Part shown: in pieces, positions 36,801 to 40,690 of the stretch
How the letters are laid out: the number at the start of each line of letters is the position of its first letter
Numbering within the stretch: the stretch's first letter is position 1
Source: Ridgeia piscesae
Lineage: Eukaryota; Annelida; Polychaeta; Sabellida; Siboglinidae
Assembly: GCA_025642075.2 (NCBI GenBank)
Contig: JAODUO010000073.1
Span: forward strand, 268,501-332,500
Length of the DNA: 64,000 nucleotides
Direction: 5' to 3'
The notes under the pieces: generated by a model
The model's input: only the letters and a program-made list of their open reading frames with translations
Database searches by the model: none
What the model was told of the DNA's origin: nothing
Position numbers and translations under genes: made by a program

Positions 36801-39800
36801 TAATCTTTATTTGGAATTGTATAATTACATACAATCATAAAAATCAACAAAATAATATACAATTCCATCCAGGGTGAGAGCGGAGCCAAGTAAGGCTGTA
36901 ACCAGTTTGTTTACATTTTCCAATGTGAGATAATAATTATTAAGATAAGTAAGCTGCTTGCCATTGTCCTCAAAAGATATTTGGTGGTTTGAAAGGATGA
37001 CAAATACACTTTTTTTCATTTGCAAATTTATAAATACACTCCTTAACATTAATAATTGAATTATTTTAACATTCATAATTGAATTATTTTAACATTCATA
37101 ATTGAATTATTTTCCATGTTAATATCTGTTCATTTATCAACAGGGAAGTGTCTCTCGCTGTGAGGCCAATGGCGAGGTGAACTTGAAGAGTTTCCTTGTT
37201 GGCACTCCTCACATCCAGCTTGGCTTTAGCAATGACCTGACAGTCGGCAGGGATGACAGAAACAAAGGTGACTTTTTTAATGTTGTATACATAACATTTT
37301 ATATGCACATTAAAACACTGTTTAAATGACAATTATTTTTAAAACTCATCAAGAAGGAAGTTTACAATTGTATGAATTTTCCTGTTGATATGCCTAAAGC
37401 AAGGGTACTTTGTTATTAATATTATAATTCAAATCAACAGTTACTATTTTGGTTAATTAATATAATTATATTTGAATTTAAATTGACCATTTTTTTTACA
37501 TACTGTACCGGGTAGTTATGTCTTCTTTCTTGAGGTCTAGAATTGGTAAATTGTTACATGATTTTTTATTTAAATGTGATGACATTTTAATAATAATAAT
37601 GTATATTTTATTGTTTTGAGTTGATTGTATATTATCCTACATGTTTTATCAGATATTTCACTTTTTAGGTTGTTTTATCAGATATCTCACTTTTTAGGTT
37701 ATGGAAAGATCACAAACTTGGATGAGTGTAGTTTTCACGAGTGTGTTGATTCAAGTGAGTTTGAAAGTGCCAGGATGTTGAAGATTCGACCACCTGAAGG
37801 AGAGGTGAGATGACACAGAGTACAGAATGCAGGGATGTGTTTCATTTCTCTGATGGATAACACATGACATGAGTGTGTCACTTGGTCACACCAACAGGAC
37901 ATTGTAAGATCCACAGTGTACCTGTCTATGTCCAGTACACACCCAGAATCCAGGAGGTGTCTAGTGTGAAATTCAAGTATAAAGATTGATTTATCAGTGT
38001 TGTACTACAGTATAGCAATCCCTATACATGTGCTAAAATTTGCATATTTTAATTTATCTAAAAATTGGGCATTTGCTAATATATTATGAAGTGATGTCAT
38101 ATGTAATATGTTTTAACCAATCCTAAGACAGACACTGCCATTGACCAATGAGAGCATTGTACCTTTCATTTACATAGAATTCAGAACAAGACAAACGTGT
38201 TAAGGGCATTTTAGTGTCATCTATGTTTGTTTGTGTCTTCTCAGTTGACAGTGCTCAGCTATTCCCAGCGTGGACGTGTGACACAAGGCCTGCCTTTTAG
38301 AGTTGTCTCCTACGTGAAAAATGATATCTCCAGTAGGTAAGCACATGCACACACACCCACGCACACACACATGCATGCACACACACATACACGCACGCAC
38401 ACATGCATGCACACACACACGGATCCAGCCATGCAAGCACACACACACAGACAGTGATCTAAATAATTATTCACTTCCTTTAGAATAAGAAGATAAAACG
38501 ATTAAAAACACATAACTATCATATTGGTGAACATTGCCACATATTTTTAAATAAATGTTTTTTTACTTTGTGTGGAATCTCGCAAATGCAGAATTTCTCA
38601 AATACCAAATCCTAAAACATCTAAAGTAGCACAAGTATAAAATAAGTAATAATTGTTCAAGTCGTATGAACATATATTATCTTAAATTAGCTGCACAGAT
38701 CAGTTGTAGAAATGTATTGTTTTATTTTCCAATGGTGTTATGATGTGTGTTGTTCATTTAACTAGTACCACAAACTGAGTGCTGAAATGTGACATTTCTA
38801 AAGTATCAGTATGATACATGATTCAGCTGTTTACACTTTTTAATTAATGTTATATTTAATAGACTTATTTAATTTATAGTTTTATTATGAGCACCCCATA
38901 ATATTTGAATACATGATGTTTGGTTCATATTATTGTTGTTATTAATGCTGTCAACATTGATAAAAATACACCTTTTGAAGACGAGTGTTTCTCTCTGCAG
39001 AGATATGGAGCTGGGATTGAAGCTTCACTGTGATATCCCAGGTACCTGCCAGGCCGTCAAAGTGGTTGTGAACATACCAGTTCCCCACAGTACAGCAAGG
39101 CAAGTGCTTCTCTGTTTAACTGTCACAATGTATCGGTTTCATTATGCTTGTGGATGGCTAGGTGCATTCATTAATAATATATTCATTAATAATATTTATT
39201 TAGTTGAGCACCACATCCAATCCTGTCAAGTGATGTTTACATTCAACAGCACAGTGTTTAAACTAAATAAATAAATACAATGCTACTTTTGAATAAAAAC
39301 AGTGGTGTATGATCTTAATTATTTTAGTTGGCAATTTAATATGAATTTATTAAATTGCCATATAAAATCATTTAGATCTTATAATTTTACCATAAAATAA
39401 TACAACTAAGACCAATATAAAGATAAAAAAGTATGTGAAAATAAATAATTAATAGATAATAAACATGAGCAGCTATTGTAACAGTGTTGGTAATTGTGAC
39501 GTGAATGTGTCACCTCTTGCAGTGTCAGTCATTGTGTCACCCCTTACAATGTCAGTCAATGTGTCACCTCTTGCGGTGTCAGTCAATGTGTCACCTCTTG
39601 CCGTGTCAGTCAATGTGTCACCCCTTACAATGTCAGTCAATGTGTCACCTTTTGCAATGTCAGTCAATGTGTCACCTCTTGCAGTGTCAGTCAATGTGTC
39701 ACCTCTTGCAGTGTCAGTCAATGTGTCACCTCTTGCAGTGTCAGTCAGTGTGTCACCTCTTGCAGTGTCAGTCAGTGTGTCACCTCTTGCAGTGTCAGTC

Positions 39801-40690
39801 AATGTGTCACCTCTTGCAGTGTCAGTCAATATGTCACCTCTTGCAGTGTCAGTCAATGTGTCACCTCTTGCAGTGTCAGCCAATGTGTCACCTCTTGCAG
39901 TGTCAGTCGTTGTGTCACCTCTTGCAGTGTCAGTCGTTGTGTCACCTCTTGCAGTGTCAGTCAGTGTGTCACCTCTTGCAGTGTCAGCCAGCAGCTGAGT
40001 GGGCCGGGGCAGACAGCAGAACTAGTCACTTCAGGCAACAAGATCCAGTGGTGCATTGACAAGATTCTTGGCAGCAGCGATGTGTCTGCCCATTTCAAGG
40101 TGTGTAACAACAGTTCAGGTCACAAACATGTGTTTAGACTGTCATCCATTGCATTTTGCATCATACACGTGCATGGTTTTGTTTGTGGTTTGGTTACGAC
40201 TTTGATTTATTTTTATCATTCAACTAATGCAAAGCTAAGCACTAATGTAAAGCCAGCTGCTAAACACCTGCCTTTTGTAATGATTTATCGTATTGTAAAT
40301 TTTTGACTGTGTTTTGGACAGCAGCCAGTGCCAGTGGGCATATATAAAATGAGTTTGGTGCAATTGGCTGCGTGGCACTTCTTGACAAAACCGTTGATTT
40401 AAAGAATTGGCTCTCTGGCTTTGAAACTGTTAAACATGAATCTAACTGAGCCTGGGAAGCAAGTTCAATGCTGATGTAGTGTTTTGTTTTTTCAGTTGAT
40501 CTCAGCCAATGAGAGTCCAGCGAGTCGTATGCAGCTTGGTCCAGTGGCCCTCACGTTTGAGGTGTCCGGATGTGTGTGCTCCGGCCTCCAGATCCGCTTC
40601 CTGCGAGTGTGTGAGCAGGACCGGGCGTACATCCCCCAGCGCTGGATCCGCTACATCACAACAGCCGACTCCTACATTGTCAAGTTGTGA
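29533..40690 (+). CDS. AP4M1: AP-4 complex subunit mu (complete, 13 coding exons)
   Basis: Medium subunit of the AP-4 adaptor, which sorts cargo at the trans-Golgi network. Exons: 29533-29593, 32565-32650, 33896-33999, 34517-34613, 35063-35164, 35844-35915, 36594-36659, 37144-37267, 37698-37804, 38245-38336, 39001-39099, 39982-40099, 40496-40690. All phases match and the sum is 1323 nt (440 aa plus stop), against 453 aa in human. The N-terminal longin-type domain starts MLLSELLIISAGKQLLISKK. Exon 4 has VYQLLKDFCGRVTQETLMAN and exon 5 DSGYVQLTSAEKLRPYIQ, both AP4M1-like. The mu-homology domain follows from about exon 7 (KNEVFIDIIERLTV) and ends with CSGLQIRFLR and WIRYITTADSYIVKL. Intron 11 has a GC donor (AG before GCAAGT). 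The exon 9 and exon 12 acceptors are tandemly duplicated. Exon 1 is the least certain, since it is short and assigned by position, phase and longin-like sequence. Confidence 0.95.
29677..31172. mobile_element. Candidate foldback-type element in AP4M1 intron 1
   Basis: The left arm (29677-29778) carries repeated TCGCAATGC words about 20-27 bp apart. The right arm (31019-31172) carries the reverse complement (GCATTGCGA) about eight times at similar spacing. Each arm's outer end carries a GGAATG-type word. The arms are inverted and flank about 1.2 kb of A+T-rich DNA with (AT)n and (GA)n tracts. Long inverted arms made of subrepeats are typical of foldback DNA transposons. No transposase and no clear target duplication were seen. 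Confidence 0.5.
30649..30887. repeat. Compound (AT)n/(GA)n microsatellite
   Basis: (AT)n at about 30649-30718, again near 30763-30777, (GA)n at 30777-30805, (AT)n at 30809-30843, and a degenerate AT tract to 30887. It lies inside the interior of the foldback-like element. Confidence 0.9.
31890..32510. repeat. Dispersed repeat, copy 1, with an internal 187-bp duplication
   Basis: Shares successive words with 60813-61250: GACAGTCTG, TTAATTTTGAATAGTTT, GGTATCCTTATTTAATTTG, CTGGGGTAAGGCC and GAGTTGAGGGG. Inside this copy, ATGCTGCCACCTCATGGA and the following about 150 bp occur twice, from 31993 and from 32180. A third TGCTGCCACCTCACGGAG closes the copy near 32454. No coding capacity is seen. It is an unclassified, probably non-autonomous interspersed repeat in AP4M1 intron 1. 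Confidence 0.7.
32866..33136. repeat. Two short tandem repeats in AP4M1 intron 2
   Basis: A 17-bp unit (ATTTTAACATACACTGT) repeats at about 32866-33020. It runs into eleven exact copies of TTTAACTCAT at 33021-33130. Both share TTTTAAC, so the decamer probably grew from the 17-bp unit. Confidence 0.9.
37648..37697 (+). repeat. Tandem duplication of the AP4M1 exon 9 splice acceptor
   Basis: TTTTATCAGATAT(T/C)TCACTTTTTAG plus GTTG occurs twice in tandem, 29 bp apart. Both copies end in a full acceptor (AG at 37667-37668 and 37696-37697). The second gives the correct phase for exon 9. The first would add 29 nt and shift the frame. Confidence 0.9.
38339..38445. repeat. (CA)-rich tract just after AP4M1 exon 10
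   Basis: A degenerate CACACGCACACAC tract with ATGCATGC interruptions begins a few bases after the exon 10 donor (GTAAGC at 38337). Confidence 0.85.
39503..39990 (+). repeat. 27-bp minisatellite made of the AP4M1 exon 12 splice acceptor
   Basis: Eighteen 27-bp units, each with GTGTCACCTCTTGCAG then TGTCAGTCA. The last unit is the real exon 12 boundary (AG at 39980-39981, exon TGTCAGCCAGCAG). The unit therefore equals nine exon bases plus eighteen intron bases. Unit 1 and units 7-18 keep TTGCAG. Units 2-6 have TTACAA, TTGCGG, TTGCCG, TTACAA and TTGCAA. The most distal acceptor (exon start 39523) is exactly 17 units upstream. The frame of exon 12 stays open across the whole array (SVSQCVTSC-type repeats). 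Confidence 0.93.

What the first reader, a model, noticed from the sequence alone, without database searches (positions are those of the whole stretch)
39503..39990. A minisatellite built from a splice acceptor: AP4M1 exon 12 has up to 13 tandem, in-frame 3' splice sites
Each 27-bp unit is the intron/exon junction itself (eighteen intron bases ending TTGCAG plus the first nine exon bases), repeated 18 times. One internal unit (near 39877) carries the exon-type CAGCCA instead of CAGTCA, supporting origin from the junction. Unit length is a multiple of three and the exon 12 frame has no stop across the array. Any upstream acceptor would therefore add multiples of nine residues (SVSQCVTSC type, Cys-rich), up to 153, to the AP-4 mu homology domain. 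Five adjacent units (2-6) have lost the AG. This would be length-variable, repeat-encoded splice choice in a trafficking adaptor.
Basis: partly seen in the sequence, partly recalled or inferred. Interest (0 to 1): 0.88.

Follow-up and report, generated by a model that had tools for sequence, protein, structure and literature searches.

The report
Splice acceptor copied into a minisatellite
In the AP4M1 gene (a protein-sorting adaptor) of a genome matching the vent tubeworm Ridgeia, a 27-base stretch across an intron-exon junction is repeated about 18 times, leaving 13 identical splice-acceptor sequences in one reading frame; the last is likely the main one used, and any other would add blocks of nine amino acids, which no RNA has yet shown.

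Summary
The window carries AP4M1 (modelled as 13 exons, 29533-40690, 440 aa), matching Ridgeia piscesae. The intron before exon 12 ends in 18 units of 27 bp: 18 intron bases ending TTGCAG plus 9 exon-type bases. Thirteen units keep the AG, in a 16-base context identical to the real acceptor at 39981/39982. All are in phase, so using one would add 9n residues, up to 153. Five adjacent units have lost the AG.

Use of the upstream sites is not shown. The deposited Ridgeia protein reads as spliced to the last acceptor, and none of 66 proteins found by homology is longer at that point. The open frame is weak evidence: all three + frames of the unit are open. Minor upstream use is plausible: this is the only GC-AG intron of 12 modelled, and in a crude first-AG scan none of 27 branch-point-like sites picks the last AG, though the scan thus misses the annotated site too.

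Exon 9's acceptor is also duplicated, once, by 29 bp; use of the upstream copy would hit a stop. The nearest known case is the splice-donor minisatellite of human IFI6. This is an acceptor version: real and testable, function unproven.

The parts
29533..40690 (+). AP4M1 (AP-4 complex subunit mu-1), modelled as 13 exons, 440 aa
   Evidence: exon model; the first two exons are one of 26 open combinations, chosen for likeness to P0001; Ridgeia P0002 100% over its 339 residues, Lamellibrachia P0001 86%; PF00928
39001..39099 (+). exon 11, ending ...AGCAAG
39100..39105 (+). GC donor (AAG|GCAAGT), the only non-GT donor among the 12 introns modelled
   Evidence: the nearby GT at 39104 joined to 39982 shifts the frame and hits a stop
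39496..39990 (+). 27-bp junction minisatellite: 18 intron bases + 9 exon-type bases per unit; TRF span 39504-39987
39521..39522 (+). intact AG of the first unit
39523..39657 (+). five adjacent units whose acceptor AG is lost (AA, GG, CG, AA, AA)
39658..39981 (+). twelve units with intact acceptor AG, 16-base context identical to the real acceptor
39980..39981 (+). AG of the last unit = the acceptor that the deposited Ridgeia protein implies
39982..40099 (+). exon 12; its first 9 bases match the repeat at 8 of 9
39944..39944 (+). candidate branch-point A (GTCAC) 37 nt before the last AG, with other AGs in between; the same motif recurs in the units
   Evidence: motif rule recalled, not tested
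37642..37699 (+). second junction duplication in the same gene: 29 bp x 2, each copy ending TTTTTAG|GT, before exon 9 (37698)

Best explanation
The 3' end of AP4M1 intron 11 is a 27-bp minisatellite of the intron-exon junction that likely arose by tandem duplication of that junction; its last acceptor is likely the main one, and its twelve identical upstream acceptors are predicted to be used at a low level, each adding nine residues per unit. Shown: the array, the 13 identical contexts, the common phase, the GC donor and a deposited protein that reads as spliced to the last site. Inferred: that each unit brings its own polypyrimidine tract, AG and a usable branch point, so the spliceosome meets a ladder of equal choices; that a unit length divisible by three keeps every choice open-framed and so let the array grow; and that the extra residues would sit at a loop-to-strand edge of the mu homology domain. 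Minor, noise-like use is my reading; regulated use is not supported.
For: Sequence: 18 units; 13 AGs with the same 16-base context and the same score as the real acceptor. Phase: 27 is a multiple of three and the array reads open into exon 12. Origin: the unit's exon part copies conserved coding sequence, as S-V/I-S-Q is found in tubeworm and scallop homologues. The GC donor's surrounding bases fit the donor consensus, and GC donors are enriched in alternatively spliced genes (PMC2490688, section 1 part 1 read). Scanning: under a first-AG rule, 27 branch-point-like T-N-A-Y sites in 39440-39990 choose AGs spread over the array, and none of them chooses 39981 at either minimum distance tried. 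Canonical product: Ridgeia P0002 reads as 39099 joined to 39982. Place of the insert: residue 236 of P0002, the first residue of a strand after a six-residue loop, in a model of mean pLDDT 79.4, 92 around the site.
Against: No RNA evidence at all for upstream use. Of 66 proteins (P0002 included) 62 have exactly 14 residues across the site and the other 4 have fewer. No predicted protein with this gene's array peptide came up. The scan model does not predict the annotated site either, and 3 (at 12 nt) or 7 (at 18 nt) of its 27 picks are out of phase, so its rules (recalled motif, two cut-offs) are crude. The duplicated strong acceptor before exon 9 would cause a stop if used, which suggests this gene can ignore upstream copies.
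Confidence: 0.48

Rival explanations
1. Inert intronic repeat: only the last acceptor (39981/39982) is ever used, through exon-side signals, and the upstream copies are passive.
For: Deposited Ridgeia protein reads as spliced to the last site; none of 66 proteins is longer at that point; no array peptide of this gene in the protein searches; a strong duplicated upstream acceptor before exon 9 would give a stop if used; the window is full of minisatellites, and shifted arrays overlap two or more acceptors in 4299 of 20000 trials.
Against: Thirteen identical 16-base contexts give the spliceosome nothing local to tell them apart.
Confidence: 0.36
2. Functional, length-variable splice ladder: tissues or individuals use different units and the nine-residue blocks tune AP-4.
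For: GC donor, frame-safe unit, insert at a loop edge; clustered loss of AG in five 5' units, 3 of 7 distinct changes at the AG, binomial 0.011, chosen after seeing the data.
Against: No expression data, no second species, strict length conservation at this site in the 66 proteins; the cluster weakens to 3 of 11, 0.043, over all units, and the first unit keeps its AG.
Confidence: 0.08
3. Assembly artefact: copy number or the array itself is wrong.
For: Tandem arrays can be mis-sized in assemblies (general knowledge); no reads could be inspected.
Against: Several units carry variants found in no other unit, there is no N in the window, and arrays up to about 4 kb are present.
Confidence: 0.05
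4. The real intron uses the GT at 39104 and the acceptor at 39991/39992, so the array lies wholly inside an intron that ends downstream.
For: That pair is open and in frame (STARQQLS).
Against: It gives 2 residues fewer than the deposited protein and than the 62 of 66 proteins that have 14 residues across the site.
Confidence: 0.03

Closest known systems
Minisatellite of human IFI6 (6-16, G1P3) that provides multiple splice donors (Turri 1995)
   Same: A minisatellite carries the splice signal in its units and offers several sites. A passage in PMC4526556 says that downstream repeat units are used as donors, enabling three mRNA species, and its reference list gives the 1995 title. That the repeat lies at the exon-intron junction, and the unit size, are recalled.
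   Different: There the repeated signal is the donor and use is reported; here it is the acceptor, in AP4M1, with no RNA evidence. The 1995 paper itself was not held.
Tandem acceptors (NAGNAG and other close in-frame 3' splice sites)
   Same: More than one in-frame AG at one intron end; insertions of whole codons. Selection against such sites in ordered regions is reported (PMC2279118, abstract).
   Different: That abstract treats differences of 3, 6 or 9 nt; here there are 13 acceptors 27 nt apart (or multiples), made by a repeat.
GC-AG introns linked to alternative splicing
   Same: GC donor whose other bases fit the donor consensus (AAG|GCAAGT).
   Different: The acceptor array is not part of that class.

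Membership tests
AP-4 complex subunit mu-1 (AP4M1) | Adap_comp_sub / mu homology domain and best match to AP-4 mu | tested here: met
   PF00928 1.8e-56; best solved structure 9u9i AP-4 mu-1, 5.5e-86; named AP-4 mu homologues
Minisatellite | Head-to-tail units of roughly 10-100 bp (definition recalled) | tested here: met
   27 bp x 17.9 copies
Minisatellite | Copy number varies between individuals | not testable with these tools
   one sequence only; the genome search did not complete
IFI6-type splice-site minisatellite | Each unit holds the splice-site consensus of the junction | tested here: met
   13 of 18 units keep the acceptor AG in identical 16-base context; 5 of 18 have lost it
IFI6-type splice-site minisatellite | The repeated site is a splice donor | tested here: not met
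   the repeated site is an acceptor
IFI6-type splice-site minisatellite | Several mRNA species from different units | not testable with these tools
   no RNA data held
NAGNAG / close tandem acceptors | Acceptors 3-9 nt apart | tested here: not met
   main acceptors are 27 nt apart or more; a weaker-scoring TGTCAG lies 6 nt downstream of each unit end
GC-AG intron | GC donor in strong context joined to AG | tested here: met
   AAG|GCAAGT ... TTGCAG gives the sequence of the deposited protein

The most novel reading that the evidence does not exclude
Intron 11 of tubeworm AP4M1 is a splice ladder: 13 identical acceptors give a family of AP-4 mu proteins that differ by nine-residue blocks, and the spread of isoforms is set by the heritable number of repeat units, so that a minisatellite directly encodes protein length through splicing.
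Probability: 0.17. Interest if true: 0.8.

Novelty: new variant of a known kind. Interest (0 to 1): 0.5.

Why it matters
If upstream units are used at all, this is a natural experiment on how the spliceosome picks among 13 local copies of one acceptor, with the frame held constant. It also gives a simple genome-wide test: if upstream copies are used, arrays across acceptors should favour unit lengths divisible by three. This gene offers one example of each kind: 27 bp with 18 copies, and 29 bp with two.

Tried and rejected
Reading the open frame as proof of coding: rejected, since all three + frames and one - frame of the unit are open. Selection against upstream AGs: kept only as a hint, because the test was chosen after seeing the five units, one lesion type is shared by units 1 and 4, and the whole-array figure is 3 of 11, 0.043. 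RNA hairpins hiding acceptors: rejected; 39470-40010 folds worse than all 100 shuffles, z 3.23. Excess of arrays at acceptors in this gene: not significant, 4299 of 20000 shifts. The unit elsewhere in the window: no 22-base core match with up to 3 mismatches, only six 10-base matches. Array peptide in other proteins: P0067 (38% identity over 56% of the query, E 3.3e-4) judged a chance low-complexity match by eye; could only see proteins of about 110-350 residues, while one search covered about 215-684. Array in viral contigs: no exact 22-base match. Rfam (gathering threshold) and tRNA scans of the window: none. Literature: no report of an acceptor-bearing minisatellite seen in the listings (the last two returned no paper); PMC3039753, passages only, is a promoter case. 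The library holds open-licence papers only. The acceptor weights and the branch-point motif are recalled, not from a call.

Full report
What the locus is. The window holds an AP4M1 gene on the + strand. I modelled 11 exons from 33896 to 40690 and two 5' exons, 29533-29593 and 32565-32650, found by comparison with the Lamellibrachia protein (one of 26 open combinations listed, chosen because it reads like that protein). The joined model has 440 residues, the same as Lamellibrachia satsuma P0001 (86% identical over the 391-residue part searched). The Ridgeia piscesae protein NP493_72g03000 (P0002) is 100% identical over its 339 residues, so the window is from Ridgeia piscesae or a very near relative (inference). 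The window has no N, whereas the published Ridgeia assembly has a contig N50 of 10.42 kb (PMC9921365, passages), so it may come from another assembly. The protein matches PF00928, and its best solved matches are AP-4 mu-1.

The array. TRF reports 27 bp x 17.9 copies at 39504-39987. Set so that each unit ends at the acceptor, units end at 39522 + 27n, n = 0 to 17. Units 0 and 6 to 17 end in AG: 13 of 18. Units 1 to 5 end in AA, GG, CG, AA, AA. Unit 0 shares only the 18-base intron part (6 of its first 9 bases differ). The exon part, TGTCAGTCA, matches the real exon start TGTCAGCCA at 8 of 9; unit 14 has the exon form. Tubeworm and scallop homologues keep S-V/I-S-Q here, so the exon part is old coding sequence and the array most likely copied it, not the other way round (inference).

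Thirteen equal acceptors. All 13 have the same 16-base context and so the same score as the real acceptor, 7.22 with a recalled weight table; the 11 acceptors of exons 3-13 range from 3.44 to 11.56, and 87 of 4666 AGs in the window, the array's own included, score as high. Each unit end is followed six bases on by a TGTCAG. Branch-point-like GTCAC recurs in the units, 37 nt before the next unit's end. A linear first-AG search from the branch point, with AGs nearer than about 12-15 nt sometimes bypassed, is described in PMC1431707 (passages read); PMC7317903 (passages read) says this model does not apply to many of its mutations. I ran such a scan from 27 T-N-A-Y sites in 39440-39990. With a minimum of 12 nt, 21 of 27 pick a TGTCAG site, 3 pick 39522 and 3 pick out-of-phase AGs before the array. 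With 18 nt, 9 of 27 pick the end of the next unit, 8 a TGTCAG site, 3 pick 39522 and 7 pick out-of-phase AGs. None picks 39981 in either run. The model is crude, and it does not predict the annotated site.

Frame. From 39523 the array reads SVSxCVTxC-type blocks straight into exon 12. Any unit-end AG adds a multiple of nine residues, up to 153. This is open by sequence, but all three + frames of the unit are open and the chance of an open frame at this composition is 0.70, so openness is no sign of selection.

The donor. The intron starts with GC in the context AAG|GCAAGT. The other 11 introns modelled start with GT. A GT four bases downstream gives a stop with 39982; with 39992 it is in frame but gives two residues fewer than the deposited protein. 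GC donors are rare and enriched in alternatively spliced genes of human, worm and Arabidopsis (PMC2490688, section 1 part 1).

Evidence on use. P0002 runs STASVSQQLS, which is what 39099 joined to 39982 gives. The Ridgeia genome paper used homology, ab initio prediction on masked sequence and muscle RNA-seq (PMC9921365, passages); I could not check that P0002 comes from that annotation, nor which evidence supported it. In an alignment of 66 proteins (P0002 among them, some of them other mu subunits), 62 have exactly 14 residues across the site and four have fewer (0, 3, 10 and 12). A few positions further on, past the LSG motif, some more distant ones have one to four extra residues, not blocks of nine. 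A search with the array plus exon 12 found only P0002, through the exon part, and one unrelated-looking low-complexity protein, P0067; by its length rule it could not see full-length long isoforms. The whole-protein search could (about 215-684 residues) and listed one Ridgeia protein, P0002. Protein collections cannot rule out minor isoforms.

Where added residues would sit. In an AlphaFold2 model of P0002 (26 sequences, mean pLDDT 79.4, 92 for residues 231-240), the junction serine is residue 236, first residue of strand 236-241 after a six-residue loop. A small insert there may be tolerated; 153 residues with many cysteines seems less likely to be (inference).

Loss of AG. Units 1-5 have 7 distinct changes, 3 at the two AG positions (binomial 0.011); over units 1-17 it is 3 of 11 (0.043); in units 6-17 it is 0 of 5. 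This could mean that upstream sites were harmful and removed, or that older units decayed. The test was chosen after seeing the data.

A second case in the same gene. Before exon 9 a 29-bp segment ending TTTTTAG|GT stands twice, one base different. Its upstream acceptor scores 10.64 against 10.07 for the real one. Its use would give a stop eight residues past the shared glycine. So two of the five arrays lying between exons 3 and 13 span an acceptor; one has a unit divisible by three and 18 copies, the other has not and stands at two. Two cases prove nothing, and the overlap is no more than shifted arrays often give (4299 of 20000), but this states a test.

Comparison. Human IFI6 has a minisatellite whose units serve as splice donors (passage and reference title in PMC4526556; original paper not held). 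This is the acceptor counterpart in structure; membership of that kind fails on the donor and is untested on use. It is not a NAGNAG site.

Verdict. The functional claim is open. I give about even odds that upstream acceptors are used at a low level, about one in three that they are silent, and under one in ten that they are functional.

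Noticed in passing
37642-37699: 29-bp tandem duplication of the exon 9 acceptor (TTTTTAG|GT); the upstream copy is as strong by a recalled weight table and would lead to a stop if used.
   Followed up: yes
2610-6110, 9175-12232, 12623-16723, 16996-18444, 22902-24226, 24727-27473, 62030-64000: Seven long minisatellites of 18-52 bp units (TRF also lists multiples up to 156) in 64 kb.
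   Followed up: no
39546 and 39627: Units 1 and 4 share three changes: one creates CTTAC, a branch-point-like motif, and another removes the AG.
   Followed up: partly
39470-40010: The array RNA is predicted to fold less well than all 100 shuffles (z 3.23).
   Followed up: partly
59782-59938: 52-bp unit repeated three times at 99% matches, containing AGGT twice and the 10-mer GCAGTGTCAG that also occurs in the AP4M1 array.
   Followed up: no
56506-57024: Minus-strand open frame with an HSP20/alpha-crystallin domain.
   Followed up: no
51767-52708: Minus-strand reverse transcriptase fragment (PF00078).
   Followed up: no
57787-58568: About 780 bp of GGAC and CGGT four-base repeats.
   Followed up: no
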